From NCBI RefSeq assembly GCF_013408925.1, contig NZ_JACCAB010000001.1, forward strand, positions 2,852,001 to 2,916,000: a stretch of DNA of 64,000 nt, read 5' to 3'. Position 1 is the first letter of the stretch. Each line of letters begins with the position of its first letter. Below are positions 308-63,870 of the stretch, one piece after another. Both the position numbers and the translations under genes were made by a program. The DNA comes from Pedococcus badiiscoriae. Its GTDB lineage: Bacteria; Actinomycetota; Actinomycetes; Actinomycetales; Dermatophilaceae. The notes under the pieces are model-generated. The model saw only the letters and a program-made list of their open reading frames with translations. It was not told where the DNA came from and searched no databases.

Positions 308-1321
308 TCAGCCGAGCTCGCGCAGCCCCGGCAGGACGCGGTCGGCGAACGTGCTCAGGAACCGGGCCTGGTCGTCACCGGGACCGTGGAAGACGAGGTG
401 GTTGAAACCCCAGTCGACGTACGGTCTCACCGCGGCGACGACCTCCTCCGGGTCGTCCGACACGATCCACCGCGAGGCGACCTGCTCGTCCGGGAGGGCG
501 TCACCGAGCCGCTCCATCTCCAGCGGGTCGCTGGTGCCGTGCTTCTGCTCGGCGGTCAGGGACAGCGGCGCCCAGAACCGGCAGTTGGTCACGGCCTGCT
601 CACGGTCAGGATCCCAGGACAGCTTGATCTCGATCATCCTGTCGATGTCCTCGCGGGTGCGGCCCGACTTGTCGAGCCCCTCGTCCACGGCCGGCAGGAG
701 CTTGTCGCGGTAGAGCTCCTCGCCCTTGCCGGAGGTGCAGATGAACCCGTCACCGGCCCGCCCGGCATACCGCGCCACGAGGGGGCCGCCGGCGGCGACG
801 TAGACCGGCACCGGCTGGTCGGGCCGGTCGTAGACGGTCGCATCGACGACGCGGTAGTAGTCGCCCTCGAAGGTCACCCGATCCTCGGTCCACAGCCTGC
901 GCATCAGGCTGACGGCCTCCCGCAGCCGGCCGAACCGCTCCTTGAACTCGGGCCACTCGTCGCCACCGACGGAGCCGACGACGACCTCGTTGAGGGCCTC
1001 CCCGGTGCCGACCCCCAGCACCACCCGGCCCGGGTACAGGGACCCGAGAGTGCCGAAGGCCTGCGCCACGACGGCGGGGTTGTAGCGGAAGGTCGGGGTC
1101 ATGACGGACGTCCCGAGCTGCACCCGCTCGGTCCGCTCGCCCAGCGCCGCCAGCCACGCGAGCGAGAAGGGGGCGTGACCCCCGTGGTGACGCCACGGCT
1201 GGAAGTGGTCGGAGATCAGCACGGTGTCCAGGCCGACCTGCTCGGCCAGCACGCCGAACTCCAGCAGGTCCCGGGGGGCGAACTGCTCGGCGGAGGCCTT
1301 GTATCCGATCCTCAGGGTCAT
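308..1321 (-). CDS. fgd: F420-dependent glucose-6-phosphate dehydrogenase
   Basis: 337 aa, luciferase-like (TIM barrel) F420 oxidoreductase. It matches, from memory, the 336-residue mycobacterial Fgd1 almost end to end. Conserved stretches include [33 protein letters not shown] and [14 protein letters not shown]. The family's catalytic His, Trp and Glu correspond to H39, W43 and E108. The expected reaction is oxidation of glucose-6-phosphate to 6-phosphogluconolactone with reduction of cofactor F420, in the cytoplasm; this supplies F420H2 for other reductases and implies that the host makes F420. The ATG start has TAGGGT 6 nt upstream. Other F420 LLM enzymes are similar, but the match here is specific to Fgd. 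Confidence 0.93.
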
Positions 1322-1327
1322 GCCCTC

Positions 1328-1333
1328 ACCCTA
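1328..1333 (-). promoter_or_regulatory. Leaderless -10 box of fgd
   Basis: TAGGGT (minus strand), followed by 6 nt and then the ATG of fgd. A leaderless transcript is inferred. Confidence 0.55.
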
Positions 1334-1343
1334 GGGCGGCCGG

Positions 1344-2237
1344 CTACTCGAGGAATGAGTTCTCGGGCGACGGGAAGGTGCCCGACGCGACATCGGCGGC
1401 GTAGGCGGACGCAGCGGCGCTGAGGGCTGCGCGCAGATCGGCGTACTTCTTCACGAAGCGAGGGGCCTTGCCACCGCGCAGGCCGGCCATGTCCTGCCAC
1501 ACGAGCACCTGCGCGTCGCAGTCCGGGCCCGCGCCGATGCCAATGGTCGGGATCCGCAGGACCTCGGTGACCCGGGCGGCCAGGGGAGCGGGCACCATCT
1601 CCATCACCACGGCGAAGCAGCCGGCCTTCTCCAGGGCGACCGCGTCCTCCACGAGCCGGTCGGCGCTGTCGCCACGGCCCTGCACCCGGTAGCCGCCGAG
1701 CACGTGCTCGCTCTGCGGCGTGAACCCGATGTGTCCCATCACCGGGATGCCGGCCCGGACGAGGAGCTCGACCTCGGGCACCATCGGCTTGCCACCCTCG
1801 AGCTTGACGGCGTGCGCCATGCCCTCCTTCATGAACCGGGTGGCCGTGGCGAGGGCCTGCTGCGGGCTGGCCTGGTACGAGCCGAAGGGAAGGTCTGCCA
1901 CCACCATGGCGTGCTTGGCGGCCGAGGTGACGGCGCGCACCAGCGGGACGAGGTGGTCCACCGTGACGGGGACGGTCGTCTCGAACCCGTAGACGTTGTT
2001 GCCGGCGGAGTCGCCGACGAGGAGCACCGGGATGCCTGCCTCGTCGAAGATCTCGGCGGCATACATGTCGTAGGCCGTGAGCATGGCCCACTTCTCGCCC
2101 TTCTCCTTCATCGCCTGCAGGTGCGGCACGCGGACCCGGCGCTGGGGCGCGGCCTGCGCGCCGGTGCCGTAGGGGGCGCTGACCTCGGGGGCGGTCCTGG
2201 AAGCTGAGGTGGAAGCTGAGGTGGGCTGGTCGCTCAT
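1344..2237 (-). CDS. panB: 3-methyl-2-oxobutanoate hydroxymethyltransferase
   Basis: 297 aa. It transfers a hydroxymethyl group from 5,10-methylene-THF to alpha-ketoisovalerate, giving ketopantoate, the first committed step of pantothenate and CoA synthesis; the enzyme is a cytoplasmic TIM-barrel oligomer. Recognisable family stretches are [40 protein letters not shown] and [18 protein letters not shown], which carry the Mg and substrate-binding acidic residues. The N-terminal ~25 residues (Ser/Thr/Ala-rich) are poorly conserved. I place the start at ATG 2237 because TAGGAT lies 7 nt upstream; the ATG three codons earlier (2246) overlaps that hexamer. It lies 22 nt upstream of fgd on the same strand, with no other pan gene next to it. 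Confidence 0.95.
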
Positions 2238-4998: not shown

Positions 4999-5982
4999 AT
5001 GCACAGCTCGCCCGCGGTTCGGTTGCGTGGCGTCACCAAGTACTTCGGTGACGTGGTCGCGCTCGACGGGGTCGACCTCGACATCCCGCGCGGTCAGGTG
5101 CACGGCCTGGTGGGGCCGAACGGCGCAGGCAAGACCACGCTGCTCGGGCTGCTGCTCGGCCTGTCGGTCGCGGACAAGGGGACCCTCGAGATCGTGGGCG
5201 CCCCCGTCGACCGGGTGCTCGGCATACCAGACGGGGTGGCGGGGTTCGTGGACGGGCCGGGCCTGTATCCCTCCCTGACCGCGCGTCAGAACCTCATGGC
5301 CCTCACCGGGCTCCGTGGGCGCAAGGCCGGTCGTCGGCAGGCGGCCGACCGTCGCGCCGAGGTCGACCGCGTCCTCGACCAGGTCGGTCTGGTCGACGTT
5401 GCCGACGAGCGCCTGCGCGGCTACTCCCTCGGCATGCGCCAGCGGCTCGGTCTGGCGGCTGCACTGCTCAGCACCCCCCAGCTGCTCGTGCTCGACGAGC
5501 CGTCCAACGGCCTCGACCCGGCGGGCAAGCGTCAGGTCTTCAGGGTGCTGAGCGAGCTGGCCGCGCAGGGCGCCGCGGTGGTGATCTCCAGCCACCACAT
5601 GGACGACCTTGCCGCGCTGTGCTCCGAGGTCACGCTCCTAGCCGGCGGCCGGGTCGTCTTCACCGGGCCGGTCGGGAAGCTCGCGGCGGAGAGTGGGCGG
5701 CTCGACTACCGCGTGCTCACCTCGGACGGCGCGGCCGCCCGACACGTCGCTCTGCAGACCCCCGGCATCGAGGTCGTGACGGGCGAGCACCTTCTCGAGC
5801 CTGACGACGAGGCCTTCGTCGCTCGCGGGCCCGTCGGTGCCGTGGACGAGCTCGTCACCCGGATCGTCGGAGCGGGACTGGCGCTGCGGGAGCTGAGACC
5901 CGTCGTCTCGCCCCTGGAGGCGGCGTTCCTGTCGCTCACCGGAGCGGACGACCCCACGACGTCGCAGGCGGGTGTCCGATGA
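4999..5982 (+). CDS. ABC transporter ATP-binding protein
   Basis: 327 aa. The nucleotide-binding domain carries Walker A GPNGAGKTT (about residue 38), the Q-loop region, signature YSLGMRQRL, Walker B LLVLDEPSNGLDP and H-loop SSHH. The C-terminal ~100 residues resemble the regulatory tail of DrrA/CcmA-type exporter ATPases. It hydrolyses ATP to drive the membrane partner encoded next; the two genes overlap by 4 nt (ATGA), so they should be translated together. The ribosome binding site AGAGGA lies 4 nt before the ATG. The substrate is unknown; the family covers drug, lipid and bacteriocin-resistance exporters. Confidence 0.92.
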   Translation: MHSSPAVRLRGVTKYFGDVVALDGVDLDIPRGQVHGLVGPNGAGKTTLLGLLLGLSVADKGTLEIVGAPVDRVLGIPDGVAGFVDGPGLYPSLTARQNLMALTGLRGRKAGRRQAADRRAEVDRVLDQVGLVDVADERLRGYSLGMRQRLGLAAALLSTPQLLVLDEPSNGLDPAGKRQVFRVLSELAAQGAAVVISSHHMDDLAALCSEVTLLAGGRVVFTGPVGKLAAESGRLDYRVLTSDGAAARHVALQTPGIEVVTGEHLLEPDDEAFVARGPVGAVDELVTRIVGAGLALRELRPVVSPLEAAFLSLTGADDPTTSQAGVR

Positions 5983-7358
5983 GCTCCGCCCTCGCAGAGG
6001 CTCCGGCTGCTGTCGGTCCCGCCACGGCTGGGGCCGCGGGTCCTGCCGACCTCCTCTCGAGCGTCCGCTTCGAGTGGGTCAAGCTGGTGAGCCAGTGGCG
6101 GGTCCGCATCGTCCTGCTGGCCTGCTGGCTCGGGCCTGCGATCTTCATCGCGATCGCCAGCCAGCAGAGCTCGCTGCCGAGCGACACCGTGTTCGGGCGC
6201 TGGATGTCCGCCACCGGCTGGGCCGGGTCGCTGGTGGTGCTCGGCTTCTCCTGCAGCTGGGTGCTCCCACTCATCACCGCGCTCGTCGCCGGCGACGTGT
6301 TCGCCGCCGAGGACCGCTTGGGGACGTGGCGTCACCTCGTCATGGCGGTCCGGTCGCCGCGGCGCATCTTCGTCGCGAAGGCGCTCGCCAGCACCGCGGT
6401 GATCCTCGTCATGGAGGCCGGTCTGGCCGCGTCGAGCATCCTGGGCGGAGTTGCCGCGGTCGGCAACCATGCGCTCGTCGGGCTGGACGGCACGGTCATC
6501 GACCCGGGGCAGGCCGCGCGGTCGGTGCTGCTGTCCTGGGCGTGCGTGGTCGCCGCCTCCCTCGCGTATGCCGCCGTGGGCCTGCTCGGTTCCGTCGCGC
6601 TGGGCCGCTCGCCGATGGGCCTGCTCGTGCCGGCCTTGCTCGCGTTCGGCCTGCAGTCGGCCCAGCTGCTGCCCATGCCCGCCACCGTGCGTCTTGCCCT
6701 CCCGAGCCAGACGTTCCTGGCGTGGCGCGGCCTGTTCACGAGCCCGGCCCAGCCGGGGCCACTGCTCGTCGGCCTGTCGGTCAGCCTCGCCTGGGTCGTG
6801 GTCGCGACCACGCTGGCGTACCTCCTCTTCGTCCGCCGTGACTTCGCCGGCCTGACCTACGACGGTGCCGGGCTGCGCCTGCTTCTCGTCGGAGCCGTGC
6901 CGCTCGCCGTCCTGACAGGGGCCAGCATCGCGGTCGTCGGGGCGGCGACGCCGGCGACCGGCTCCGGCATCCAGCGACCGAAGGTGGAGCAGTCCGTTGC
7001 CACCTCGTTCGCGCACCTGTACCGGCTGCAGGCCCGTGAGCTCCACCGCCCGGACGTCACCGAGGAGCAGCTGCGCACCAGCGCCTCGTGCTACCGGGCC
7101 GGATCGCACGGCAACGACGCAGGCCCGGGCAACGACTGGCGATGTGTCGTGTCCTGGCACATCCCGGGCGCCACCGCCGTGGGAACGGCCATCTACCAGC
7201 TCGATGTCGCCGCCGAAGGACGCTACGTCGCCGATGGCGACGGGCCCCGTGAGGTGAACGGCTACTTCCAGGTGCACACCCCGACCGGGGACGCACCCAA
7301 CCCCTTGTGGCAGGTCGATGGTCTCGTCGACCTGTCGCGCACCCCCTCGAAAGGATGA
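5979..7358 (+). CDS. ABC transporter permease (ABC-2 type)
   Basis: 459 aa integral membrane protein. After a short Ala/Pro-rich N-terminus come about six hydrophobic spans (starting near residues 46, 82, 140, 185, 265 and 300 by eye), then a polar C-terminal region of ~140 residues containing two Cys. That tail probably lies outside the membrane and is unusual for a simple ABC-2 permease. It overlaps the ATPase gene (ATGA) and ends 2 nt before the next start, so the three genes look like one operon. It would form the transmembrane pore for the ATPase. The substrate is unknown. Confidence 0.85.
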   Translation: MSSALAEAPAAVGPATAGAAGPADLLSSVRFEWVKLVSQWRVRIVLLACWLGPAIFIAIASQQSSLPSDTVFGRWMSATGWAGSLVVLGFSCSWVLPLITALVAGDVFAAEDRLGTWRHLVMAVRSPRRIFVAKALASTAVILVMEAGLAASSILGGVAAVGNHALVGLDGTVIDPGQAARSVLLSWACVVAASLAYAAVGLLGSVALGRSPMGLLVPALLAFGLQSAQLLPMPATVRLALPSQTFLAWRGLFTSPAQPGPLLVGLSVSLAWVVVATTLAYLLFVRRDFAGLTYDGAGLRLLLVGAVPLAVLTGASIAVVGAATPATGSGIQRPKVEQSVATSFAHLYRLQARELHRPDVTEEQLRTSASCYRAGSHGNDAGPGNDWRCVVSWHIPGATAVGTAIYQLDVAAEGRYVADGDGPREVNGYFQVHTPTGDAPNPLWQVDGLVDLSRTPSKG

Positions 7359-7360
7359 AC

Positions 7361-10162
7361 ATGCAGGTCACGCAACAGCGGCGACGCATTTCGCCGACCA
7401 GTCCCGAGCAGGTCGGTCGTAGCCGCACCCGGTTCCGATCGGTCCTCGTCGGCACCGTGGTCCTCACCATCGCCGGCGGCGGGATCGCCTACGCGACCAC
7501 CGACGCCTTCGGAAACCGCACGGTCGGCACGCAGTACGCCGACGGGCTCCAGGTCTCCGACAACCAGGTGATCAAGCCGATCGGTACCCGGCTCATGACC
7601 GAGTACGGCAAGTTCATGGGATCGACGGTCAGCCCTGACGGCAGGTTCCTCGCCGCGAGCAGCGCGGACAAGAGCGTGGTGCTCCAGGTCTTCGACCTCG
7701 CCGCCAACAAGCTGGTCTACCGGGTCGGCAAGGCCGCCGGCGCGGACCAGTTCCTGGCCGACGGCAGCGTCGGTCAGGAGCGCCCGACCTACTCACCCGA
7801 CGGCAAGTTCCTCTGGCTCTCGCAGCGTGACGCGCTCACCCGCTTCCCGGTCAACGCCGACGGGACCCTGGGAACCGCGACACGCTTCCCGCTTCCGCAG
7901 GTGAACGGAGCGTCCGCGCTTCCGGGCCAGTCGGCATACTCGCCGGACGGATCCACCCTGTATGCCGCGCTGAACGGCCAGAACACGGTGGTCGCCCTCG
8001 ACCCGGCCACCGGAGTCGTCAAGTCGACCTGGAAGGTCGGCAACGCACCCCGCCAGCTCGTGTTCAAGGGCGGCAGGCTGTACGTCAGCAACGAGGGTGG
8101 CCGGGCTGCCAAGCCCAACGAGACCGCGCTCAACTCCTACGGCACGAACGTGCCCACGGATCCCTACCTGGACACCACGACGACCGGCACGGTCAGCGTC
8201 ATCGACACTGCTGCGCCGACTGCTCCCGTCAAGTCCATCGAGGTGGGTCTGCACCCGACCGCGATGTACTCCTCCGGCAACGCCCTGTTCGTCGCCAACA
8301 CCAACAGCGACACCGTCTCGGTCATCGACACCGGCAAGGACGCGGTCGTCCAGACCATCGCCACCCAGCCGTGGCCGGCGTCCAAGGTCGGCTACGAGCC
8401 GACCGGCATCGCGCTGTCCAAGGACGGTCACCTCCTGGTCACGCTCGGCCGCGCGAACGCGGTCGCGGTCTACCGCTACGCCAACCGGCCGCAGGAGCCC
8501 GTCAGCTTCGTGGGTCTGCTTCCCACCGACTACTACCCGTCGAACGTGGCGACCGTCGGCGACCGGGTGGTCGTCACCAACAGGCGCGGCATCGATGCGC
8601 GGGGTCCGGCCATCACGACGGACAAGGGCTACGGCGTCCCGGTCGTCAGCGGCCACGACACCCACAGCACCACGGCCTCGCTGACCAGCTTCACGCTGCC
8701 CAGCGACCGGCAGATCGAGAAGTACACCTCGACGGTCTTCGCCCAGAACCGCTGGGGCAAGAACGACGTCAAGCACGGCGAGCGCGACTCCGTCGCCGCG
8801 GTCCCCGTGCCCAAGCGCCTCGGCGACCCGTCGACGATCAAGCACGTGTTCATGATCGTCAAGGAGAACCGCACCTACGACCAGGTGTACGGCGACGACG
8901 CGCGCGGCAACGGTGACCCCTCGCTGGTGCAGTTCGGCCAGAAGGTCACGCCCAACCAGCACGCGCTGGAGAAGCAGTTCGGGCTCTACGACAACACGTA
9001 CGACATCGGCACCAACTCCGCCGAGGGTCACAACTGGCTGATGCAGGGCGACAACCCGGAGTACACCGAGTCCAGCGCCGGCGAGTACGTCCGCAGCTAC
9101 GACACCGAGGACGACGTCCTCGGACACCAGCGGTCCGGATTCCTGTGGACCTCGGCGATCTCCGCGGGCAAGACCGCGCTCAACTACGGCGAGTTCACCC
9201 AGTTCCTGACCAAGCCGGCCGGTGCGACGTGGCAGAAGTACTACTGCGCCACCAAGGCGGGGGAGGCCGGCGGTGACCCCAGCCAGCTGACCGACCCGTC
9301 ACTCAAGTCGGACACCCAGTCGCCGATCCCGTCGCTGAACCAGATCACGGTCCACGACTACCCGAAGTTCGACGTCAACATCCCCGACACCTACCGGTAC
9401 CAGCTCTGGAAGCAGGACTTCCAGAAGCGCGGTCCGGCGAACTTCAACATGCTCTGGCTCTCGAGTGACCACACCGGCGGCGCACCCGACGCGAGGGCGC
9501 AGGTCGCCGACGGTGACCTCGCCGTGGGCCGTGTCGTCGACCAGATCTCGCACAGCAAGTACTGGAAGGACTCGGCGATCTTCGTGGTCGAGGACGACAG
9601 CCAGGACGGTGCCGACCACGTGGACGGCCACCGGGCGCCGGTCCAGGTCATCAGCCCGTGGGCGCAGCACGGCAAGGTCGTGAACCGCTACTACTCGCAG
9701 ATCAACATGGTGCGCACCATCCAGCAGATCCTGGGAGCGCAGCCGCTGAACCAGAAGCTCGCAGCGGCCACGCCGATGTACGACGCCTTCCAGTCCAAGC
9801 CGGACCTCACCCCCTTCACCGCGGTGCCGAACCAGATCCCGCTCACGGAGCAGGTCACTCCTGCTCCGACGTGTGGTCAGGACACCCCGGCCGGGGGCAC
9901 CGGTGCGGCGCAGCCCAACGGTGCGACCACCGCGTCCGTGCCGCCGTCGCAGAAGGCGGTCGCGGCGCAGTGGGAGACCTGGCGGAAGAAGCAGGCCTTC
10001 AACAGCAGCAACCCTTCCCCCGACACCGCCAGCCCTGAGCTGATGAACCGGTTCACCTGGTACCAGGCGCACGACTGGTCCCGCCCGTACCCGGGCGACT
10101 CGAAGATCTACGCCCCGTCTCAGGTCCCGGGTGCGTACATCCCGAGCGCGGACGGGCAGTAG
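7361..10162 (+). CDS. Membrane-anchored YVTN propeller plus phosphoesterase (alkaline-phosphatase-fold) protein
   Basis: 933 aa. Residues ~28-45 (VLVGTVVLTIAGGGIAYA) form an N-terminal membrane anchor or signal. Residues ~60-430 carry repeated YNCE/YVTN-type propeller blades (VSPDGRFLAASS, YSPDGSTLYAAL, GTVSVIDT, DTVSVIDTGKDAVV). The second half begins with FMIVKENRTYDQVYGD, the hallmark of the bacterial phosphoesterase family (acid phosphatase/phospholipase C-like), followed by SSDHTGG and VVEDDSQDGADHVDGHR, which supply metal-binding Asp/His. It probably hydrolyses a phosphate ester outside the membrane; the substrate is unknown. ATG 7361 is preferred (GAAAGGA 5 nt upstream) over ATG 7355. 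It is the last gene of the ABC operon. Confidence 0.87.
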   Translation: MQVTQQRRRISPTSPEQVGRSRTRFRSVLVGTVVLTIAGGGIAYATTDAFGNRTVGTQYADGLQVSDNQVIKPIGTRLMTEYGKFMGSTVSPDGRFLAASSADKSVVLQVFDLAANKLVYRVGKAAGADQFLADGSVGQERPTYSPDGKFLWLSQRDALTRFPVNADGTLGTATRFPLPQVNGASALPGQSAYSPDGSTLYAALNGQNTVVALDPATGVVKSTWKVGNAPRQLVFKGGRLYVSNEGGRAAKPNETALNSYGTNVPTDPYLDTTTTGTVSVIDTAAPTAPVKSIEVGLHPTAMYSSGNALFVANTNSDTVSVIDTGKDAVVQTIATQPWPASKVGYEPTGIALSKDGHLLVTLGRANAVAVYRYANRPQEPVSFVGLLPTDYYPSNVATVGDRVVVTNRRGIDARGPAITTDKGYGVPVVSGHDTHSTTASLTSFTLPSDRQIEKYTSTVFAQNRWGKNDVKHGERDSVAAVPVPKRLGDPSTIKHVFMIVKENRTYDQVYGDDARGNGDPSLVQFGQKVTPNQHALEKQFGLYDNTYDIGTNSAEGHNWLMQGDNPEYTESSAGEYVRSYDTEDDVLGHQRSGFLWTSAISAGKTALNYGEFTQFLTKPAGATWQKYYCATKAGEAGGDPSQLTDPSLKSDTQSPIPSLNQITVHDYPKFDVNIPDTYRYQLWKQDFQKRGPANFNMLWLSSDHTGGAPDARAQVADGDLAVGRVVDQISHSKYWKDSAIFVVEDDSQDGADHVDGHRAPVQVISPWAQHGKVVNRYYSQINMVRTIQQILGAQPLNQKLAAATPMYDAFQSKPDLTPFTAVPNQIPLTEQVTPAPTCGQDTPAGGTGAAQPNGATTASVPPSQKAVAAQWETWRKKQAFNSSNPSPDTASPELMNRFTWYQAHDWSRPYPGDSKIYAPSQVPGAYIPSADGQ

Positions 10163-10274: not shown

Positions 10275-11825
10275 GTGATCTACGACGACGTCGTCATCGG
10301 TGCCGGCCACAACGGGCTCACGGCCGCGGCATACCTTGCCCGCGCGGGACGCCGGGTGCTCGTGCTGGAAGCCGCCGACCACGTGGGCGGGGCCGCGGTC
10401 TCGGCGCAGGCGTTCCCGGGCGTCGACGCGCGCCTGTCGCGCTACTCCTACCTCGTCTCCCTCATGCCCCGGCAGGTGATCGCCGACCTCGACCTCGACG
10501 TGCGGCTGATCCGGCGGCGGTTCTCTTCGTTCACCCCGGTCCCGGGCGACCCCCAGCGCGGCCTGTTGGTCGACAACGGCGACGAGGCAGCGACCGCCGC
10601 GGGCTTCACCGCCCTCACCGGCGGCGGCGCGGAGTATGCCGCGTGGCAGGACTTCTACGGGCGCGTGCACCACCTGGCCCAACAGGTCTTCCCGACCGTC
10701 CTCGAACCCCTTCGCAGCGAGGCCGACCTCGCCGCGATGGTGGGGGACGACGAGCTCTGGGACGCCCTGGTCCGGCGGCCGCTGGGCGAGGTCCTCGCAA
10801 AGCGGTTCGGCGACGACACCGTCCGCGGGATCGTGGCCACCGACGCGCTCATCGGCACGTTCGCCGACCTCGACGGAGCTGACCTGCGCCAGAACGTCTG
10901 CTTCCTCTACCACCTCATCGGGGGAGGCACGGGGGACTGGGACGTGCCGGTCGGGGGCATGGGAGCGGTGACGGACGGACTGGCTCGCGCTGCTGTCAAG
11001 GCCGGGGCGCAGCTCCGGACCGGGACAACGGTGCTCGCGGTCGACCCCGACGGTGTCGTCCGATGGGAAGGTGGCTCTGCCCAGGCGACCACCATCCACG
11101 CGGCCTGCGCGCCGGCGGTGCTCAACACGCTCCTCACCGCGGCGGGTGCAGAACCCCTGCCGACCGAGGAGGCGCCCGAGGGTGCCCAGCTCAAGGTGAA
11201 CATGCTCCTGTCGCGCCTTCCGCGGCTGCGCGACCAGGACGTCGACCCGGCCGCCGCCTTTGCCGGCACCTTCCACGTGAACGAGGGGTACGGCCAGCTC
11301 CAGGAGGCGTATGCCGCCGCAGAGGCCGGCCGGGTGCCCCAGGTCCCGCCGTGCGAGATCTACTGCCACAGCCTGTCGGACCGCTCGATCCTCGGACCCG
11401 AGCTCGCCGCCGGCGACGCGCAGACGCTCACCCTCTTCGGACTGCACCTGCCGGCCCGCCTGTTCCGGGGGACGCAGCAGGAACACGATGCGGTCAAGGA
11501 CCTCGCGTTGGCCCGCACCCTGGACTCGCTCAACTCGGTGCTGGCCGAACCCATCCAGGACGTCCTGCTGCGTGACCCCGACGGGGCGTTCTGCATGGAG
11601 GCCCGCACCCCGGTCGAGCTCGAGGCAGACCTCGGCCTGCCGGGCGGGAACATCTTCCACCGCTCCCTCCAGTGGCCCTGGGCCGAGAGCGACGCGGAGG
11701 TCGGCAGCTGGGGCGTGGAGACCGCGTACCCGACCGTCCGCATCGCCGGCGCCGGCGCTCGGCGCGGCGGCGGAGTCAGCGGGATCCCGGGGCACAACGC
11801 GGCCATGTCGGTGCTCAGGGCCTGA
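10275..11825 (+). CDS. FAD-dependent oxidoreductase, phytoene-desaturase/PYROXD2-like
   Basis: 516 aa. A dinucleotide-binding GAGHNGLTAAAYLARAG motif starts at about residue 9, followed by the acidic end of the second strand (VLVLEAADHVGGAA). Further matches to the NAD(P)/FAD amine-oxidase-like superfamily are the PVGGMGAVTDGLARAA stretch and the C-terminal GAGARRGGGVSGIPGHNAA, typical of the FAD-binding end of PYROXD2-type proteins. It is probably a soluble or membrane-peripheral dehydrogenase. No carotenoid genes flank it, so phytoene is not indicated and the substrate is unknown. The 3' end overlaps the convergent membrane-protein gene by 11 nt. Confidence 0.85.
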   Translation: MIYDDVVIGAGHNGLTAAAYLARAGRRVLVLEAADHVGGAAVSAQAFPGVDARLSRYSYLVSLMPRQVIADLDLDVRLIRRRFSSFTPVPGDPQRGLLVDNGDEAATAAGFTALTGGGAEYAAWQDFYGRVHHLAQQVFPTVLEPLRSEADLAAMVGDDELWDALVRRPLGEVLAKRFGDDTVRGIVATDALIGTFADLDGADLRQNVCFLYHLIGGGTGDWDVPVGGMGAVTDGLARAAVKAGAQLRTGTTVLAVDPDGVVRWEGGSAQATTIHAACAPAVLNTLLTAAGAEPLPTEEAPEGAQLKVNMLLSRLPRLRDQDVDPAAAFAGTFHVNEGYGQLQEAYAAAEAGRVPQVPPCEIYCHSLSDRSILGPELAAGDAQTLTLFGLHLPARLFRGTQQEHDAVKDLALARTLDSLNSVLAEPIQDVLLRDPDGAFCMEARTPVELEADLGLPGGNIFHRSLQWPWAESDAEVGSWGVETAYPTVRIAGAGARRGGGVSGIPGHNAAMSVLRA

Positions 11826-13790: not shown

Positions 13791-13989
13791 CGTGCGACCA
13801 CCGACAGCGCTACCTGCATCGCAGAGCGTGAAACAGGTTGCAGGACACCACGATTGGCGCAACCGCGCCGCTGTGGACAAAGGCTGCTGATACGGCACCG
13901 ATACGGCACACCAGCGTCACTCGACGGACACGACAACGTGCCACGCGGCATACCGGCGGGTCACCGACACCAAGCCACCCGCGTGGCAC

Positions 13990-15366: not shown

Positions 15367-15429
15367 CTGGCGCCCAGCGCTCGTATGCCGCCCGCTGACC
15401 GGAGCGGGCGGTCGTCACCCGCCAGTGCG

Positions 15430-23834: not shown

Positions 23835-24472
23835 TGAGCCGGGTTGTCGTGTTCGACTACGGCAGTGGCAACGTGCGCTCGGCCGTGCGCGCGCTGGAGC
23901 ACGTGGGTGCCGAGGTGGAGCTGACCGCGGACCGTGCTGCTGCGCTCGCGGCCGACGGCCTGTTCGTGCCCGGGGTGGGGAACTTCCACGCCTGCATGGC
24001 TGGACTGCGCGCTGCCGAAGGTCCGGTGGTGATCGACCTGCGGCTCTCCGGGGGACGCCCGGTGCTCGGCGTCTGCGTCGGGATGCAGGTGTTGTTCGAC
24101 GGTTCGGACGAGCCCAGCGCTGCTCCGCAGGAGGGCCTGGGGGAGTGGCCCGGGGCAGTGTCCCGGCTGCAGGCCGACGTGGTGCCGCACATGGGCTGGT
24201 CCGAGGTCGACGTCCCGGCAGGGAGCCACCTCTTCGCGGGCGTGGAGTCCGAGCGCTTCTACTTCGTCCACTCGTATGCCGTGCAGTCCTGGACCCTGGA
24301 GGAGCCCACCGGCGCCTTCGCCGCCGTCGCCCCCAAGGTCACCTGGGCGCAGCACGGTGGGCGGTTCGTCGCAGCCGTCGAGAACGGCCCGCTGGCGGCG
24401 ACGCAGTTCCACCCCGAGAAGTCCGGTGACGCAGGCCTGGCCCTCCTCGAGAACTGGGTGAAGTCACTGTGA
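23834..24472 (+). CDS. hisH: Imidazole glycerol phosphate synthase, glutamine amidotransferase subunit
   Basis: 212 aa. Class I glutamine amidotransferase that supplies ammonia to HisF for closing the imidazole ring. The catalytic Cys is C81 in LGVCVGMQ, and the His/Glu pair lies in TQFHPEKS near the C-terminus. [12 protein letters not shown] and MGWSEV are further HisH marks. The ATG overlaps the stop of the preceding gene. The partner hisF is not in this operon, which passes straight to priA and an SseB-like gene. Confidence 0.96.
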
Positions 24473-37310: not shown

Positions 37311-38880
<1,570 letters not shown>

Positions 38881-42178: not shown

Positions 42179-45086
<2,908 letters not shown>

Positions 45087-45190
45087 CGGCATACCCGTCC
45101 GCCGGCTTCCGAGAAATCTGGGGAGCCACGCGATAGGTTCGTGGCGCGGGTCACAGTCGATCCGCATCCTCCTTGCGAAGGGACGGTGTC

Positions 45191-48978: not shown

Positions 48979-49601
48979 GCGCGCGCCTCGAGCGCGCCTT
49001 CTTCGCCGAGGACGTCCTCGACGTGGCGCCGGCCCTCCTGGGGGCCACGATCGCGCACGCCGGTGTCACCGTGCGGCTCACCGAGGTCGAGGCGTATGCC
49101 GGGACGGCAGACCCGGGCTCGCACGCCTTCCGTGGTCCCACCCCGCGCACCGAGGTGATGTTCGGCCGGGCCGGCCACCTCTACGTCTACTTCACCTACG
49201 GCATGCACTGGTGCGCCAACGTCGTCTGTGGCCCCGAGGGCGAAGCCAGCGCGGTCCTGCTGCGGGCCGGTGAGGTCGTGGGGGGAGAGGACCTCGCGGC
49301 GCAGCGCCGCTCAGGCATCCCGCGCAGGGACTGGACGCGCGGCCCGGCCCGGCTGGCGACGACGCTGGCCCTGCGCGGCGACCAGAGTGGCGTCGACGCC
49401 TGTGTGCCGCAGGGACCGCTGGCGTTCCACGCTCCGACCGAGCATGTGCCGGCCCGGCGCATCCGCACGGGTCCACGGGTGGGTGTCGCCGGCGCTGGCG
49501 GGGATGCTGCGGCCTACCCCTGGCGGTTCTGGCTGGACGGCGAGCCGACGGTGTCGGTGTACCGACCTGCAAAACCCCGTGCCCGGCGCAGCGACGCATA
49601 G
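48942..49601 (+). CDS. 3-methyladenine DNA glycosylase (AAG/MPG family)
   Basis: 219 aa. It excises alkylated purines. Family blocks: VRLTEVEAYAGTADPGSHAF, RTEVMFGRAGHLYVYFTYGM, NVVCGPEGEASAVLLRAGE and RGPARLATTLAL; the catalytic Glu lies in TEVEAYAG. The start is uncertain: GTG 48942 lies within sdhB (37-nt overlap) without a good Shine-Dalgarno, and the next GTG at 49024 would cut into the conserved N-terminal region. Co-transcription with sdhB is implied; a functional link is not. Confidence 0.9.
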   Translation: MAGQQDPSAFELGARLERAFFAEDVLDVAPALLGATIAHAGVTVRLTEVEAYAGTADPGSHAFRGPTPRTEVMFGRAGHLYVYFTYGMHWCANVVCGPEGEASAVLLRAGEVVGGEDLAAQRRSGIPRRDWTRGPARLATTLALRGDQSGVDACVPQGPLAFHAPTEHVPARRIRTGPRVGVAGAGGDAAAYPWRFWLDGEPTVSVYRPAKPRARRSDA

Positions 49602-49663
49602 GGCAGGCTTGCACCGTCGCCGGGAGCCCGGCATACCCGTGAGCACGAAGGAGCACGACCACC

Positions 49664-51613: not shown

Positions 51614-56600
<4,987 letters not shown>

Positions 56601-58055: not shown

Positions 58056-59069
58056 GTGCCGGGACTGATCGACGACTACTCGGCGGTCGTCTGTGACCTC
58101 GACGGGGTCGTCTACCGCGGTCCCGACGCAGTGGACTTCGCTGTCACGGCGCTGACGGCGCTGACGGTGCCGATCCTCTACGCGACCAACAACGCCTCAC
58201 GTCCGCCCGAAGAGGTTGCGGCGCACCTGAGCGACCTGGGCCTGCATGTCACGGGCCGCGATGTCGCGACGAGCTCGCAGGCGGGTGCCGTCGCGCTGTC
58301 CGGGTTGCTGCCGGCTGGGGCCAGGGTGCTGGCCATCGGCGGCGCTGGCGTGCGCGAGGCACTGGAGCACGCGGGTTTCGAGGTGGTGACGCCCCAGCAG
58401 GCAGGCGAGGAGCCGGACCTGGTGGTCGCCGGTGTGCTCCAGGGCTACGGCCCGTCGGTCACCGCCGCAGACCTCGCAGAGGCGGCGTATGCCGTGTCCA
58501 ACGGAGCCGTCTGGGTGGCGACCAACACCGATGCCACGCTGCCCACCCACCGGGGTACCGCTCCGGGCAACGGCACCCTCGTCGCGGCGGTGCAGCGGGC
58601 GACGGGTCGCGATCCGCTCGTGGTCGGCAAGCCCCATGCGCCGTTGTACCGCCTGTGCGCGGACCGGCTCGAGCGTCCGCCGGCCCAGGTCCTTGCGGTC
58701 GGCGACCGGCTGGACACCGATGTGGCAGGGGCCGTCGAGGCGGGGATGGACTCGGCGCTGGTGCTGACCGGGGTCGACTCCGTCTCGAGCCTGGCCGTGG
58801 CACCACCCTCGCAGCGCCCCACCTACCTGCTGGAGGACCTGCGCGCGTTGACGGAGCCGTATCTGTCGGTCGAGACCGACTATGTGTGGTGGGTCTGCGG
58901 CGGCGACCGTCGTCGGCTCGTCGACGGTTCCTGGGACGTGGCCAGCGCAGGGAGCCCCATCGAGACGGCCCGGGCCGGAACGGCCTGCCTGCACGAGGCG
59001 ATCGACCACGAGGAGCTCGGACTGGACGCGGTTCTCAGACTCGTTCCCGAGATCGACGCGTGGCAGTAG
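58056..59069 (+). CDS. HAD-superfamily hydrolase, class IIA (NagD-like)
   Basis: 337 aa. Nucleophile motif DLDGVVYRG at about residue 14; ATNNASRPPEEVAAHL (motif II region); GKPHAPLYRLC (motif III Lys) and VGDRLDTDVAGAVEAGMD (motif IV). The C2 cap of IIA type suggests a small sugar- or glycerol-phosphate phosphatase, as proposed for the M. tuberculosis counterpart Rv1692. A C-terminal extension of ~60 residues (TDYVWWVCGGDRRRLVDGSW) is additional. It starts 1 nt after the preceding stop. Confidence 0.92.
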   Translation: MPGLIDDYSAVVCDLDGVVYRGPDAVDFAVTALTALTVPILYATNNASRPPEEVAAHLSDLGLHVTGRDVATSSQAGAVALSGLLPAGARVLAIGGAGVREALEHAGFEVVTPQQAGEEPDLVVAGVLQGYGPSVTAADLAEAAYAVSNGAVWVATNTDATLPTHRGTAPGNGTLVAAVQRATGRDPLVVGKPHAPLYRLCADRLERPPAQVLAVGDRLDTDVAGAVEAGMDSALVLTGVDSVSSLAVAPPSQRPTYLLEDLRALTEPYLSVETDYVWWVCGGDRRRLVDGSWDVASAGSPIETARAGTACLHEAIDHEELGLDAVLRLVPEIDAWQ

Positions 59070-60209: not shown

Positions 60210-61012
60210 GCGACGCGACCCGCCTCGACCTCGAGCTCGTCCGGCGTGGACTGGCACGGTCCAGGGGGCACGCCCGAGCCCTGATCGACGCGGGTGACGT
60301 GAGCATCGACGGTGCGTCCGCCGCCAAGCCGGCCACCCTCGTGGGGCCCGGACAGCACGTCGAGGTGCGCGAGGAGGGACCGCGCTGGGTGAGCCGCGCG
60401 GCATACAAGCTCGTGGGTGCCCTGGAGACGTTCGGTCCCGACGGGCTCACGGCGCAGGGCAAGAGGTGCCTCGACGTGGGCGCCTCCACGGGCGGCTTCA
60501 CCCAGGTGCTCCTGCACCACGGTGCCGCCCACGTGACGGCGCTCGACGTCGGACACGACCAGCTGGTGCCGGAGCTCGCCGCGGACGCGAGGGTCACCGA
60601 GCGGTCCCGGACCACCGTCCGCGAGCTCAGGGCTGGCGACATCGGGGGAGCGGTGGACCTGCTCGTGGCCGACCTGAGCTTCATCTCGCTGACCTTGGTG
60701 CTGAACACCTTTCGAGGCCTGCTGCTCGACACCGGCGACGCGATGGTCCTGGTCAAGCCGCAGTTCGAGGTGGGCCGCACCCGCCTCGGCAAGGGCGGCA
60801 TCGTCCGCGCCCACGGCGACCGCGCCTGGGCCGTGACGGAAGTCGCCCGCGCGGGCATCGCTGCCGGGCTGCACCCCCGAGCCCTGGCGAGGAGCCCGAT
60901 CGAGGGCGGTGAAGGCAACGCCGAGTACCTGCTGTGGCTGACCCCGCGCGACGCCGAGTCGATGGGATGGGAGGCTCTGGTGAGCAGAGCGGACGAGGTC
61001 ACGGCACCGTGA
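60206..61012 (+). CDS. tlyA: 16S/23S rRNA (cytidine-2'-O)-methyltransferase TlyA
   Basis: 268 aa. N-terminal S4 domain (residues ~4-62, DLELVRRGLARSRGHARALI) and an FtsJ-like Rossmann methyltransferase with LDVGASTGGFTQVLL (SAM motif I) and ADLSFISLTLVL. Members methylate 16S C1409 and 23S C1920, which sensitises mycobacteria to capreomycin and viomycin. VKPQFEVGRTRLGKGGIVR is a family block. GTG overlaps the previous gene. Operon order tlyA-nadK-recN is conserved in actinobacteria. Confidence 0.95.
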   Translation: MSDATRLDLELVRRGLARSRGHARALIDAGDVSIDGASAAKPATLVGPGQHVEVREEGPRWVSRAAYKLVGALETFGPDGLTAQGKRCLDVGASTGGFTQVLLHHGAAHVTALDVGHDQLVPELAADARVTERSRTTVRELRAGDIGGAVDLLVADLSFISLTLVLNTFRGLLLDTGDAMVLVKPQFEVGRTRLGKGGIVRAHGDRAWAVTEVARAGIAAGLHPRALARSPIEGGEGNAEYLLWLTPRDAESMGWEALVSRADEVTAP

Positions 61013-61037: not shown

Positions 61038-62000
61038 GTGAGCGCAGGAAGTACGACGCAGCGACGCAAGGTGCTGCTCGTGGCCCACCCGCGCCGCCAG
61101 GAAGCCCAGGACGTGGCGGCCGAGGTGGTCGAACGGCTGCACGCCGCGGGCATCGACGTGGTGGTCCAGCGTGACGAGGCCACCGCCGTCAAGCTGGTCC
61201 AGCACCCCGGGGTCACCCTCGTCGACGACGCCGACACCGCCGCGGAGGGGTGCGAGCTGGTCTGCGTGCTCGGCGGTGACGGGACCATCCTGCGCGGCGC
61301 CGAGGTGTCGCGGGGGACCGGGGCGCCCCTGCTGGGGGTCAACCTGGGCCACGTCGGCTTCCTCGCGGAGGCCGAGCGGGAGGACATCGACGCCACCGTC
61401 GAGCACATCGTCGCGAAGACCTACTCCGTCGAGGAACGGATGACCCTCGAGGTCTCGGCCTACGTCAACGGGGATCCGGTCTACACCAGCTGGGCCCTCA
61501 ACGAGGTGACGGTCGAGAAGGCCAACCGCGAACGCATGCTGGAGGTCGTCGCCGAGATCGACGGTCGCCCTCTCACCACGTGGGGGTGCGACGGCGTGGT
61601 CGTGGCGACGCCCACCGGGTCGACCGCGTACGCCTTCTCCGCGGGAGGGCCGGTGGTGTGGCCCGACGTCGAGGCGGTGCTCCTGGTCCCGATCAGCGCG
61701 CATGCCCTGTTCGCCCGGCCGATGGTGCTCGGACCCAGCTCGCACCTCGCCCTCGAGGTGGTCCCCGACACCTTGGGGACGGGCGCGCTGTGGTGCGACG
61801 GCAGGCGGGCCGTGGACCTGCCGCCCGGCGCCCGCATCGAGGTGGTGCGCTCGCAGACCCCCGTCCGGCTGGCGCGGCTGACCACGTCGCCCTTCACCGA
61901 TCGGCTGGTGGCCAAGTTCGACCTGTCCATCCACGGCTGGCGCGGTGAGGCGCGGCGTGAGGGCGCGGTCCGCGGTGGCCAGGCGCCCTCGACCGCCTGA
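61038..62000 (+). CDS. nadK: NAD kinase
   Basis: 320 aa. Phosphorylates NAD to NADP with ATP or polyphosphate. GGDGT motif in VCVLGGDGTILRGAE; NEVTVEKANRERML; the SPTGSTAYAFSAGGP-like PTGSTAYAFSAGGP block binds the dinucleotide. GGAGGGG 5 nt before GTG 61038. It lies 25 nt after tlyA. Confidence 0.96.
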   Translation: MSAGSTTQRRKVLLVAHPRRQEAQDVAAEVVERLHAAGIDVVVQRDEATAVKLVQHPGVTLVDDADTAAEGCELVCVLGGDGTILRGAEVSRGTGAPLLGVNLGHVGFLAEAEREDIDATVEHIVAKTYSVEERMTLEVSAYVNGDPVYTSWALNEVTVEKANRERMLEVVAEIDGRPLTTWGCDGVVVATPTGSTAYAFSAGGPVVWPDVEAVLLVPISAHALFARPMVLGPSSHLALEVVPDTLGTGALWCDGRRAVDLPPGARIEVVRSQTPVRLARLTTSPFTDRLVAKFDLSIHGWRGEARREGAVRGGQAPSTA

Positions 62001-62055
62001 ACCACCCACCGCCAGCCTGACCGGCCGCGTCGGTCGTGCGTGAGAGGCTTCGACC

Positions 62056-63777
62056 GTGCTGTCCGAACTGAGGATCCAGGGACTCGGCGTCATTGACGAC
62101 GCCGTGCTCGAGCTGCACCCGGGGCTGAACGTCGTCACCGGCGAGACCGGCGCGGGCAAGACCATGGTGGTCACCGGCCTGGGACTGCTGCTGGGCGCCC
62201 GCGCGGATGCCGGACTGGTGCGCGCCGGAGCGGGCACGGCCGTGGTGGAGGGCGTCGTGGACGTGGCCAGCGACCATCCCGCCGCCCTGCGGGCCGCCGA
62301 GGCTGGGGCAGACGTCGCCGACGGCCTCGTCCTGGTGCGCTCGGTGTCGGCCGAGGGCCGGTCCCGCGCCCACGTCGGAGGACGCACCGCTCCGGTCGGC
62401 GTGCTCGGCGAGATCGGGGAGCACCTCGTCGCCGTCCACGGCCAGGCCGACCAGTGGCGACTGCGGCAGAGCGACCAGCACCGGGCCGTGCTCGACCAGT
62501 TCGGCGGGGCACCGCTGGACAAGGTCCTCCAGCGCTATACCGAGGTCTACGAGGCCCACCGGGCCGCGGCCGCCGAGCTCGCGAGCCTGCGTGAGCAGGC
62601 CCGGGACCGGGCCCGCGAGATCGAGGTCCTCCAGCACGGGCTCGAGCAGCTCGAGCAGGTCCACCCGCAGTCCGGCGAGGACGCCGACCTGCGGGTCGAG
62701 GACGAACGCCTCGGTCACGCCGAGGGACTTCGCCGGGCGGCGTCCTTGGCCCACGACCACCTGGCCGGCGAGCAGGAGTATGCCGTGGAGTCGGCTCCCA
62801 GCGCGGTCGAGCGGATCGCCGCGGCGCGTCAGGCCCTGACCGGCGAGGTCGAGCACGACCCCGCGCTGCGTGAGCTGGACCGCAGGCTGGCCGATCTCGG
62901 GTACCTGGCCGCCGACCTGGCCGCGGATCTCAGCGGCTACCTCTCCGACGTGGAGGTCGACCCCGCCCGGATGGCCTGGGTCCAGCAGCGCCGCGCCGAC
63001 CTCACCACGCTGACCCGCAAGTACGGCGAGACCATCGACGACGTCCTGGAGTGGGGTCGCGTCTCGGCCCAACGGCTCGACACCCTGATGGGTTCGGACA
63101 GCCGGATCGAGGCCCTCGAGCCGGAGGTGGTCAGGCTCGCCCAGGAGCGTGACACCGCGGCGCAAGCCCTGACCAAGGCGCGCAGCGCCGCTGCCAAGCG
63201 CCTGGCTGCCGCCGTGACGGGCGAGCTCGCCCACCTGGCGATGGGTCAGGCGACCGTCGACGTGGCGGTCAGCCCCCGCACCGGTGGCCTGGCCGTCCAC
63301 GGCGGGGACGACGTCGAGATCCTGCTGGCGGCGAACCCCGGCAGCCCGGCCCGCACCGTGGCCAAGGCCGCCTCCGGTGGTGAGCTCTCGCGCGTCATGC
63401 TGGCGCTCGAGGTGGTCACCGGAGCAGCGGGTGGCAGCGACGTCCCCACGTTCGTCTTCGACGAGGTCGACGCGGGGGTCGGGGGCACCGCCGCCCTCGA
63501 CGTCGGAGCCCGGTTGGCTGCCCTCGCCCAGCACGCGCAGGTCGTGGTGGTGACGCACCTGCCCCAGGTGGCGGCCTACGCTGACCGGCACCTCGTGGTC
63601 CGCAAGTCCAGCGACGGGCACATCACCTCCAGTGGCGTGCACGCCCTCGAAGGGGAGGACCGCCTTCGCGAGCTGGCTCGGATGATGGCTGGCGTCGACA
63701 CCGGGACGTCTCTCGACCACGCCCGCGAGCTCGTGGACGAGACCGCCTCCCGGCGCGGCTCCGCCGCTCGCGTCTGA
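62056..63777 (+). CDS. recN: DNA repair protein RecN
   Basis: 573 aa SMC-like ATPase for double-strand-break repair. Walker A in TGETGAGKTMVVTGLG (about residues 31-40), a Q-loop region HGQADQWRL, a central coiled coil (~150-380), signature KAASGGELSRVMLALE and Walker B TFVFDEVDAGVGG, then VTHLPQVAAYADRHL. GTG 62056 has GAGGCT 6 nt upstream, close to a leaderless box; a direct Shine-Dalgarno is lacking. No SOS (LexA) box of the Cheo type was recognised upstream. Confidence 0.96.
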   Translation: MLSELRIQGLGVIDDAVLELHPGLNVVTGETGAGKTMVVTGLGLLLGARADAGLVRAGAGTAVVEGVVDVASDHPAALRAAEAGADVADGLVLVRSVSAEGRSRAHVGGRTAPVGVLGEIGEHLVAVHGQADQWRLRQSDQHRAVLDQFGGAPLDKVLQRYTEVYEAHRAAAAELASLREQARDRAREIEVLQHGLEQLEQVHPQSGEDADLRVEDERLGHAEGLRRAASLAHDHLAGEQEYAVESAPSAVERIAAARQALTGEVEHDPALRELDRRLADLGYLAADLAADLSGYLSDVEVDPARMAWVQQRRADLTTLTRKYGETIDDVLEWGRVSAQRLDTLMGSDSRIEALEPEVVRLAQERDTAAQALTKARSAAAKRLAAAVTGELAHLAMGQATVDVAVSPRTGGLAVHGGDDVEILLAANPGSPARTVAKAASGGELSRVMLALEVVTGAAGGSDVPTFVFDEVDAGVGGTAALDVGARLAALAQHAQVVVVTHLPQVAAYADRHLVVRKSSDGHITSSGVHALEGEDRLRELARMMAGVDTGTSLDHARELVDETASRRGSAARV

Positions 63778-63870
63778 CCAGCGAAGCCGGGCGCCCTTGA
63801 CTCACGTCGCTGGCGGGCGCCCGCGTGGGGGCCGCGGCATACCTGAGGGCCCATGGGAGGATGGGACACC

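What the first reader, a model, noticed from the sequence alone, without database searches (positions are those of the whole stretch)
768..63845. Highly iterated, non-palindromic octamer GTATGCCG across the whole window
By eye I count about 40 copies of GTATGCCG/CGGCATAC (for example near 768, 2056, 7930, 7961, 10329, 11308, 13947, 15382, 20549, 28322, 28345, 33717, 37451, 38208, 38237, 43314, 45089, 49632, 58487, 62778, 63837). At ~71% GC about 2 are expected. Both orientations are common (roughly 22 plus, 18 minus), so it lacks the polarity of KOPS/FtsK sites. About seven copies lie in the few non-coding spacers, so codon-pair preference (Tyr-Ala, Ala-Tyr) cannot explain it alone. In genes it forces the TAT and GCA codons. 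The density, about one per 1.6 kb, resembles DNA uptake sequences or the cyanobacterial HIP1 repeat. The rRNA genes have none.
Basis: partly seen in the sequence, partly recalled or inferred. Interest (0 to 1): 0.75.

Follow-up and report, generated by a model that had tools for sequence, protein, structure and literature searches.

The report
Genome-wide DNA tag in actinobacteria
An eight-letter DNA word is repeated about two thousand times across this actinobacterium's chromosome and is kept in place over evolution, much like the "self" tags that a few other bacteria use when taking up DNA, which would be new for this branch of life if confirmed.

Summary
The window holds exactly 40 GTATGCCG (22+, 18-; shuffle mean 1.2); the 3.39-Mb genome holds 1,934 (963/971; reversed control 60). 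Strand, codon and dipeptide usage do not explain it. The longer form is GTATGCCGYG. Rich genomes occur in one family (Dermatophilaceae/Intrasporangiaceae, name recalled): 30 of 53 genera sampled, and none of 58 same-order genomes of other families or 195 others of the phylum. One clade carries GGATGCCG instead. Sites are exact in 71 of 82 alignments between sister species, against 34% for similar words, are scarce in low-GC DNA and absent from the rRNA operon. Best explanation (inferred, 0.6): a DNA-uptake-type self tag, spread and kept by biased natural transformation. ComEC and Tad genes are present, but also in motif-free relatives. A third Tad cluster ("Tad-3") lacks its ATPase gene in 10 of 32 motif-free and 1 of 48 motif-rich genomes, and is often split by integrating elements; the association is not significant after phylogenetic correction. 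Reader protein and uptake bias are not shown. Main rival: a methylation-maintained, HIP1-like repeat.

The parts
763..770 (-). GTATGCCG site
   Evidence: in predicted gene, sense
2057..2064 (-). GTATGCCG site
   Evidence: in gene, sense
5220..5227 (-). GTATGCCG site
   Evidence: in gene, antisense
6566..6573 (+). GTATGCCG site
   Evidence: in gene, sense
7932..7939 (-). GTATGCCG site (inverted pair with 7960)
   Evidence: in gene, antisense
7960..7967 (+). GTATGCCG site (inverted pair with 7932)
   Evidence: in gene, sense
10327..10334 (-). GTATGCCG site
   Evidence: in gene, antisense
10634..10641 (+). GTATGCCG site
   Evidence: in gene, sense
11309..11316 (+). GTATGCCG site
   Evidence: in gene, sense
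13946..13953 (-). GTATGCCG site
   Evidence: intergenic by crude ORF caller
15383..15390 (+). GTATGCCG site
   Evidence: intergenic by crude ORF caller
15911..15918 (-). GTATGCCG site
   Evidence: in gene, antisense
17286..17293 (+). GTATGCCG site
   Evidence: in gene, sense
20550..20557 (+). GTATGCCG site
   Evidence: in gene, sense
21597..21604 (-). GTATGCCG site
   Evidence: in gene, antisense
21934..21941 (+). GTATGCCG site
   Evidence: in gene, sense
23175..23182 (-). GTATGCCG site
   Evidence: in gene, antisense
24274..24281 (+). GTATGCCG site
   Evidence: intergenic by crude ORF caller
26078..26085 (-). GTATGCCG site
   Evidence: in ORF, antisense
28322..28329 (+). GTATGCCG site (inverted pair with 28345)
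   Evidence: in gene, sense
28345..28352 (-). GTATGCCG site (inverted pair with 28322)
   Evidence: in gene, antisense
33717..33724 (+). GTATGCCG site
   Evidence: in gene, sense
34985..34992 (-). GTATGCCG site
   Evidence: in gene, antisense
35678..35685 (+). GTATGCCG site
   Evidence: in gene, sense
37451..37458 (+). GTATGCCG site
   Evidence: in gene, sense
37763..37770 (+). GTATGCCG site
   Evidence: in gene, sense
38207..38214 (-). GTATGCCG site (inverted pair with 38234)
   Evidence: in gene, antisense
38234..38241 (+). GTATGCCG site (inverted pair with 38207)
   Evidence: in gene, sense
39868..39875 (+). GTATGCCG site
   Evidence: in gene, sense
40244..40251 (+). GTATGCCG site
   Evidence: in gene, sense
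41574..41581 (-). GTATGCCG site
   Evidence: in ORF, sense
43314..43321 (+). GTATGCCG site
   Evidence: intergenic by crude ORF caller
45087..45094 (-). GTATGCCG site
   Evidence: intergenic by crude ORF caller
47533..47540 (+). GTATGCCG site
   Evidence: in gene, sense
49094..49101 (+). GTATGCCG site
   Evidence: intergenic by crude ORF caller
49629..49636 (-). GTATGCCG site
   Evidence: intergenic by crude ORF caller
58487..58494 (+). GTATGCCG site
   Evidence: in gene, sense
60399..60406 (-). GTATGCCG site
   Evidence: in gene, antisense
62778..62785 (+). GTATGCCG site
   Evidence: in gene, sense
63835..63842 (-). GTATGCCG site
   Evidence: intergenic by crude ORF caller

Best explanation
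GTATGCCG, in fuller form GTATGCCGYG, is a genome-wide, non-palindromic self tag of the DNA-uptake-sequence type. In the model, a cell-surface DNA receptor of the natural-transformation machinery prefers DNA carrying the tag. Fragments with the tag are taken up more often and recombined into the chromosome, so tagged alleles spread and lost tags are restored from relatives' DNA. Over time about one tag per 1.75 kb accumulates and is kept at the same places. SHOWN by sequence: the enrichment, its restriction to one family in the genomes sampled, a one-base dialect in one clade, strict site conservation, low site retention in the congeners with the fewest copies, and scarcity in low-GC DNA, in one integrated element and in the rRNA operon.
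For: 1,934 copies without strand bias; 10-fold over synonymous shuffles in genes and over 30-fold over a Markov expectation in non-coding DNA; same extended consensus in sense, antisense and intergenic sites. Exact conservation in 71 of 82 sites over four disjoint sister pairs at 78-82% identity, against 2 of 15 for GTACGCCG and 34% for other words with three A/T; 1064 of 1743 over all ordered pairs of 11 congeners, pairs not independent. Retention per genome broadly follows whole-genome copy number (rank correlation 0.80 over 11 genomes; G004 is low for its copies). Dialect GGATGCCG in a clade with SH-aLRT 99. Density rises with GC of 5-kb windows (rho +0.50 over 90 windows of evenly placed samples and the window; +0.58 with chosen loci added), although the word is AT-richer than the genome; 8 sites in a 70.6-kb integrated element; none in the rRNA operon. 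Sense copies exceed antisense 131 to 75; one orientation is also commoner in the reading frame of known uptake sequences (abstract of PMC2346458). ComEC, ComEA and Tad genes present; in Micrococcus luteus tad loci and ComEC are needed for transformation (passages of PMC4322843 and PMC12849477). TadA of Tad-3 undetected in 10 of 32 motif-free and 1 of 48 motif-rich genomes, and Tad-3 is split or truncated in at least 8 of 80, as mobile elements do to competence genes elsewhere (passages of PMC4774983).
Against: No uptake or transformation data. ComEC (80 of 80) and the Tad-1 marker (80 of 80) are also present in motif-free relatives. The Tad-3 association is not significant after phylogenetic correction (5 independent pairs), and Tad-2 shows a similar raw association. 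Own Tad-3 is interrupted although own sites are well kept; three of the four low-retention congeners (G006, G007, G010) have an intact Tad-3; the dialect genome G036, with 3,949 GGATGCCG, has no detectable TadF-3. No enriched inverted pairs: 13 against about 8.6 by chance. No strong cloud of single-mismatch variants: most near expectation, a few about 2-fold up. No Tad-locus gene cluster specific to motif-rich genomes among the loci compared. Reader not found.
Confidence: 0.6

Rival explanations
1. A HIP1-like repeat: an orphan DNA methyltransferase recognises GTATGCCG (or part of it), and methylation-dependent repair or function creates and keeps the sites.
For: HIP1 in cyanobacteria is also an iterated octamer, can be replaced by other words in some lineages, and goes with cognate methyltransferases (abstract of PMC4390886). 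The dialect change here would fit a change of methyltransferase specificity.
Against: The word is not palindromic. Methyltransferases of PF01555 occur in only 9 of 27 motif-rich genomes searched (8 above cut-off) and not in the own genome. Other methyltransferase families were not searched.
Confidence: 0.15
2. A binding site for an abundant chromosome-organising or nucleoid protein, kept by selection at each site.
For: Wide spread and strict conservation; sharp eight-base core.
Against: No strand or regional pattern in 20 evenly spaced samples apart from two site-poor, lower-GC samples; spacing close to random; 9 changes of presence on the ComEC tree are odd for an essential architecture. The near-match GTACGCCG is not protected.
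Confidence: 0.12
3. A recombination signal (Chi-like), or a biased repair or gene-conversion process that favours the word.
For: Chi-type words are short and over-represented (recalled, not from a call). Biased conversion could also give the site conservation.
Against: Chi and KOPS are skewed towards one replication strand (recalled); here 963 to 971 overall, and the 20 samples sum to 101 and 104. Copies differ 6-fold within one genus.
Confidence: 0.08
4. Codon or dipeptide preference or composition artefact.
For: 109 of 206 coding copies in the sample are in the Tyr-Ala frame.
Against: 206 coding against about 20 in synonymous shuffles, 40 non-coding against 1.2; the word supplies 109 of 250 TAT and 25 of 60 ATA codons, both rare here.
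Confidence: 0.01

Closest known systems
DNA uptake sequence (DUS) of Neisseriaceae
   Same: Thousands of copies, dialects that follow phylogeny, more conserved than the surrounding sequence, few in acquired DNA and rRNA (passages of PMC3630211; section 8 of PMC2397512; passages of PMC7811141).
   Different: A Gram-positive (high-GC) family; no type IVa pilus PilM in the own genome or its genus, hence no ComP-type pilus evident; no enriched inverted pairs; uptake preference untested.
Uptake signal sequence (USS) of Pasteurellaceae
   Same: Iterated 9-mer, two dialects, similar counts per Mb (200-800 per Mb in passages of PMC12616744; here 571 per Mb).
   Different: USS has AT-rich flanking parts (recalled); here only a YG extension. 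The PilM marker of type IVa pili is missing here.
HIP1 (GCGATCGC) of cyanobacteria
   Same: Highly iterated octamer, replaced by other words in some lineages (abstract).
   Different: HIP1 is palindromic and tied to methyltransferases; this word is not palindromic and PF01555 is missing from 18 of 27 motif-rich genomes searched.
KOPS / Chi
   Same: Short, over-represented, chromosomal (recalled).
   Different: Those are strand-skewed (recalled); this word is not.

Membership tests
DUS/USS uptake sequence | Short non-palindromic word in hundreds to thousands of copies far above chance | tested here: met
   40 vs 1.2 in window; 1,934 vs 60 reversed control in genome
DUS/USS uptake sequence | Both orientations, no replication-strand skew | tested here: met
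   963/971; 101/104 over 20 samples
DUS/USS uptake sequence | Sites far better conserved than surrounding sequence | tested here: met
   71 of 82 vs 34%; 61% vs 22% of all 8-mers and 8-43% for ten control word sets (pairs not independent)
DUS/USS uptake sequence | Rare in newly acquired segments, rRNA and (per kb) coding sequence | tested here: met
   8 in a 70.6-kb element; density rises with GC; none in the rRNA operon; 206 in 411 kb coding vs 40 in 54 kb non-coding
DUS/USS uptake sequence | Dialects that follow phylogeny | tested here: met
   GGATGCCG in 3 genomes forming one clade, SH-aLRT 99 on a quick single-gene tree; G053 (both words) and G011 (weak) in another clade that also holds motif-free rows
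DUS/USS uptake sequence | Inverted pairs at terminators (common, not defining) | tested here: not met
   13 pairs with gaps up to 30, about 8.6 expected
DUS/USS uptake sequence | Working natural-transformation machinery | tested here: inconclusive
   ComEC, ComEA, Tad genes present, but tadA of Tad-3 is interrupted in the own genome, and the genes also occur in motif-free relatives
DUS/USS uptake sequence | Sequence-specific surface receptor (ComP-like pilin) | tested here: inconclusive
   No type IVa PilM in the genus; no motif-specific gene cluster in Tad loci compared; no reader found
DUS/USS uptake sequence | Preferential uptake or transformation by tagged DNA | not testable with these tools
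   needs a bench assay
HIP1-type repeat | Palindromic word | tested here: not met
   GTATGCCG vs its complement CGGCATAC
HIP1-type repeat | Cognate orphan methyltransferase in motif-rich genomes | tested here: inconclusive
   PF01555 in 9 of 27 motif-rich genomes; other families not searched
KOPS/FtsK or Chi | Strand polarity relative to replication | tested here: not met
   (no strand bias anywhere sampled; origin and terminus were not mapped)

The most novel reading that the evidence does not exclude
A third, independent origin of DNA uptake sequences, and the first in a Gram-positive lineage: Dermatophilaceae-type actinobacteria recognise kin DNA through GTATGCCGYG (or its dialects) with a Tad/Flp-pilus transformation machine, and integrating elements repeatedly break that machine's pilus genes to protect themselves from being removed by transformation.
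Probability: 0.42. Interest if true: 0.92.

Novelty: new variant of a known kind. Interest (0 to 1): 0.78.

Why it matters
A 2020 paper states that strong uptake preference for a genomic motif is shown by species in two families, Pasteurellaceae and Neisseriaceae (passage of PMC7811141). A tag of the same character in a large Gram-positive family would show that self-recognition in transformation arose again, probably on a different pilus. It gives a simple prediction for making such bacteria transformable: put the tag on the donor DNA. If uptake is refuted, a conserved non-palindromic genome tag of unknown purpose remains to be explained.

Tried and rejected
ComEC and the Tad-1 marker as presence/absence predictors: both in 80 of 80 genomes searched. 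Tad-locus gene content as predictor: no motif-specific cluster seen among 20 Tad-1 loci or 20 Tad-3 loci, with a crude ORF caller. Tad-2: not listed for 16 of 48 motif-rich genomes, by my rough sorting of the hits. Tad-3 presence: raw Fisher p 4e-5 (3e-4 with G056 counted as lacking it), but only 5 independent pairs on starred branches, not significant. Tad-3 integrity as the cause of low retention inside the genus: not supported. PF01555 methyltransferase. Hairpin or terminator role. Strong spacing rule: gaps near random, CV 0.925 against 0.974 +- 0.057. GTACGCCG as a dialect: dropped, because it is raised in other families too and is not conserved. Paper searches for the word, for DUS or USS in Actinobacteria, for iterated octamers and for this family with uptake terms showed no prior report in the listings seen (643, 0, 0, 1, 16 and 109 papers held the terms; at most 20, 12 and 12 were listed; open-licence PMC only). 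Not used: structure prediction and fold search.
Full report
OBSERVATION. The window has 40 GTATGCCG, 22 plus and 18 minus; 100 shuffles gave mean 1.16 and at most 5. It is the top octamer against a third-order Markov model (40 against 1.6). All 21 listed positions are within 5 bases of a site, and the rRNA operon (16S 51614-53139, 23S, 5S) has none. The own genome (one contig, 3,386,878 bases; window = 2852001-2916000) has 963 + 971 copies; the reversed word has 28 + 32. Twenty 20-kb samples sum to 101 plus and 104 minus, with no sample strongly one-sided.

NOT CODON USAGE. In 464 kb (20 samples plus window, rRNA masked; crude ORF caller, 393 ORFs), 206 copies are coding (131 sense, 75 antisense) against means of 13.8 + 6.0 in 60 synonymous-codon shuffles, and 40 are non-coding against a second-order Markov 1.2. 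The shuffles keep the TAT supply that the motif itself creates, so they are conservative. The word accounts for 109 of 250 TAT codons and 25 of 60 ATA codons in the sample. The extended form GTATGCCGYG holds in sense (+10 G in 103 of 145), antisense (68 of 88) and intergenic sites (35 of 46) alike (sample with a few chosen loci added). Single-mismatch variants show no strong cloud: most are near expectation, while CTATGCCG, GGATGCCG, GTAGGCCG, GTGTGCCG and a few rare ones are up about 1.6- to 2.4-fold (window). Inverted pairs are not enriched (13; about 8.6 expected by my arithmetic). Spacing is near random, slightly even.

WHO HAS IT. One search covered 147 genomes: own, 10 congeners, 78 others of family f1, 58 of 19 other families. 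All 11 of the genus have 625 to 3,986 copies; by my count 30 of 53 f1 genera have a genome with over 600 (up to 4,724); the other f1 genomes have under 300; none of the 58 outside f1 exceeds 167. A phylum draw of 198 genomes (195 outside f1) gave at most 386 outside f1, in a 7.5-Mb genome with control 176. Named ComEC loci, some with rows identical to f1 genomes on the tree, place f1 as Dermatophilaceae/Intrasporangiaceae (family name recalled): Knoellia remsis, Intrasporangium oryzae, Phycicoccus elongatus, Humibacillus, Terrabacter, Ornithinimicrobium and Arsenicicoccus loci carry the word; Janibacter indicus, Intrasporangium flavum, Dermacoccus abyssi and one Phycicoccus MAG loci have none. 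The window's own genus was not named. For further work I used 80 of the 89 f1 genomes (nine, eight of them at most 90% complete, left out): 44 GTATGCCG-rich, 4 GGATGCCG, 32 without.

DIALECTS. GGATGCCG reaches 3,816, 3,838 and 3,949 copies in G026, G073 and G036, where GTATGCCG is low (235, 272 and 40); G053 has both (2,195 and 1,217); G011 is weak (1,336); in the other 75 of 80 it is at most 1,038. On a quick ComEC tree (103 rows) G026, G073 and G036 form a clade with SH-aLRT 99. Presence/absence needs 9 changes on the tree; the scattered pattern reads most simply as an old trait lost several times, but the count cannot tell gain from loss. A Phycicoccus MAG locus has GAATGCCG 14 beside GTATGCCG 8 (small sample).

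SITES ARE KEPT IN PLACE. In ComEC and Tad-1 regions of 11 congeners, all ordered pairs (not independent), 1064 of 1743 aligned sites are exact, against 52 of 329 for GTACGCCG, 22% of all 8-mers and 8-43% for ten control word sets. Exact retention is 0.78-0.85 in G000, G002, G005 and G008, 0.59-0.73 in G001, G003 and G004, and 0.35-0.45 in G006, G007, G009 and G010, the four with the fewest copies (rank correlation 0.80). GTACGCCG, the synonymous TAT to TAC change, is among the commonest replacements. Over four disjoint sister pairs and three loci: 71 of 82 motif sites exact, 2 of 15 GTACGCCG, 15,267 of 45,137 other words with three A/T. The neisserial DUS is likewise far more conserved than its surroundings (section 8 of PMC2397512 read).

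ACQUIRED DNA. In evenly placed samples plus the window, site density rises with GC (90 windows of 5 kb, rho +0.50; 0.93 per 5 kb at 66-68% GC, 3.68 above 72%), the reverse of what base composition alone predicts for a word with three A/T. An integrated element at 2,353.5-2,424.1 kb has 8 sites in 70.6 kb against about 40 at the genome's mean density.

MACHINERY. ComEC is in 80 of 80 genomes; in the own genome ComEA (SLBB + HHH) precedes ComEC. The Tad marker TIGR03816 is in 80 of 80 (77 above cut-off). Type IVa PilM is absent from the genus. TadA hits fall into at least three classes (my sorting); I call the third Tad-3 (TadA-TadB-TadC-Flp-TadE-TadF). The TadA-3 orthologue is undetected in 10 of 32 motif-free genomes and 1 of 48 motif-rich ones (G056, which keeps remnants and pilins): Fisher 3e-4, or 4e-5 if G056 is counted as interrupted. 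TadF-3 is undetected in 11 of 80, one of them motif-rich (G036), two at contig ends (G075, G085). Tad-2 shows a similar raw association, and only 5 phylogenetically independent pairs exist, so no association is established. Tad-3 is split by intervening DNA with both sides found in G000, G009, G017 (tadA) and G078 (tadC), and truncated in G027 (tadA), G036 and G058 (tadC) and G056 (both): at least 8 of 80, the tadC end having been read only in fetched loci; G031 lies on two contigs and is unresolved. Serine recombinases lie beside the break in G000, G009 and G017. Mobile elements in competence genes are known elsewhere (passages of PMC4774983), which makes Tad-3 a plausible uptake pilus, no more. 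Against it: the own Tad-3 is interrupted while its sites are well kept, and G006, G007 and G010 retain few sites with an intact Tad-3.

MECHANISM AND RIVALS. Biased uptake with recombination ('molecular drive', passages of PMC7811141) accounts for copy number, lack of polarity, site retention, dialects, and scarcity in islands and rRNA. A methylation-maintained HIP1-like repeat is the main rival (abstract of PMC4390886); the non-palindromic word and the absence of PF01555 from 18 of 27 motif-rich genomes count against it, but other methyltransferase families were not searched. PMC7811141 names two families with strong uptake preference. My searches showed no report for actinobacteria in the listings seen; they cover open-licence PMC papers only.

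VERDICT. A real, strong, family-level genomic tag with the sequence properties of an uptake sequence; the function is inferred, not shown.

Noticed in passing
L189 7610-9145(-), 9101-9625(+); L209 12773-13516; own genome about 2353.5-2424.1 kb (outside the window): tadA of the Tad-3 cluster in the own genome is split by a ~70.6-kb element with a serine recombinase and Dpd (7-deazaguanine DNA modification) genes: DpdA, B, C, D, E, F, H, J plus QueC.
   Followed up: partly
L197/L223 (G009), L220 (G017), L215-L216 (G027), L212 (G056), L214 (G036), L213 (G058), L200/L221 (G078): Tad-3 is split or truncated in at least 8 of 80 family genomes including the own one, at recurring places: tadA near residues 222-228 and 248-251, tadC near 230-271.
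   Followed up: partly
L032, L033, L053, L063 (G046): A motif-free relative has its own enriched word CGAAGGGGG (41 against 2.5 expected in 74 kb) and runs of G.
   Followed up: no
L077 (Arsenicicoccus bolidensis), L074 and L083 (Phycicoccus and Tetrasphaera MAGs): Possible further dialects: GTATGACG and GTATGGCG raised in L077; GAATGCCG raised in L074 and L083 (single loci).
   Followed up: no
L058 5198-7872 (G004): ComEC lies in two overlapping frames (424 and 584 aa) in a motif-rich congener, suggesting a frameshift or an assembly error.
   Followed up: no
L065, L188 (G035): Of the 54 f1 genomes searched for PilM, only G035 has a full-length match (G030 a partial one); its congener G078, not searched for PilM, has almost no motif.
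   Followed up: no
L002 (own genome 190001-210000): A 20-kb stretch of lower GC (0.679) with one site only, perhaps an acquired island; its genes were not identified.
   Followed up: no
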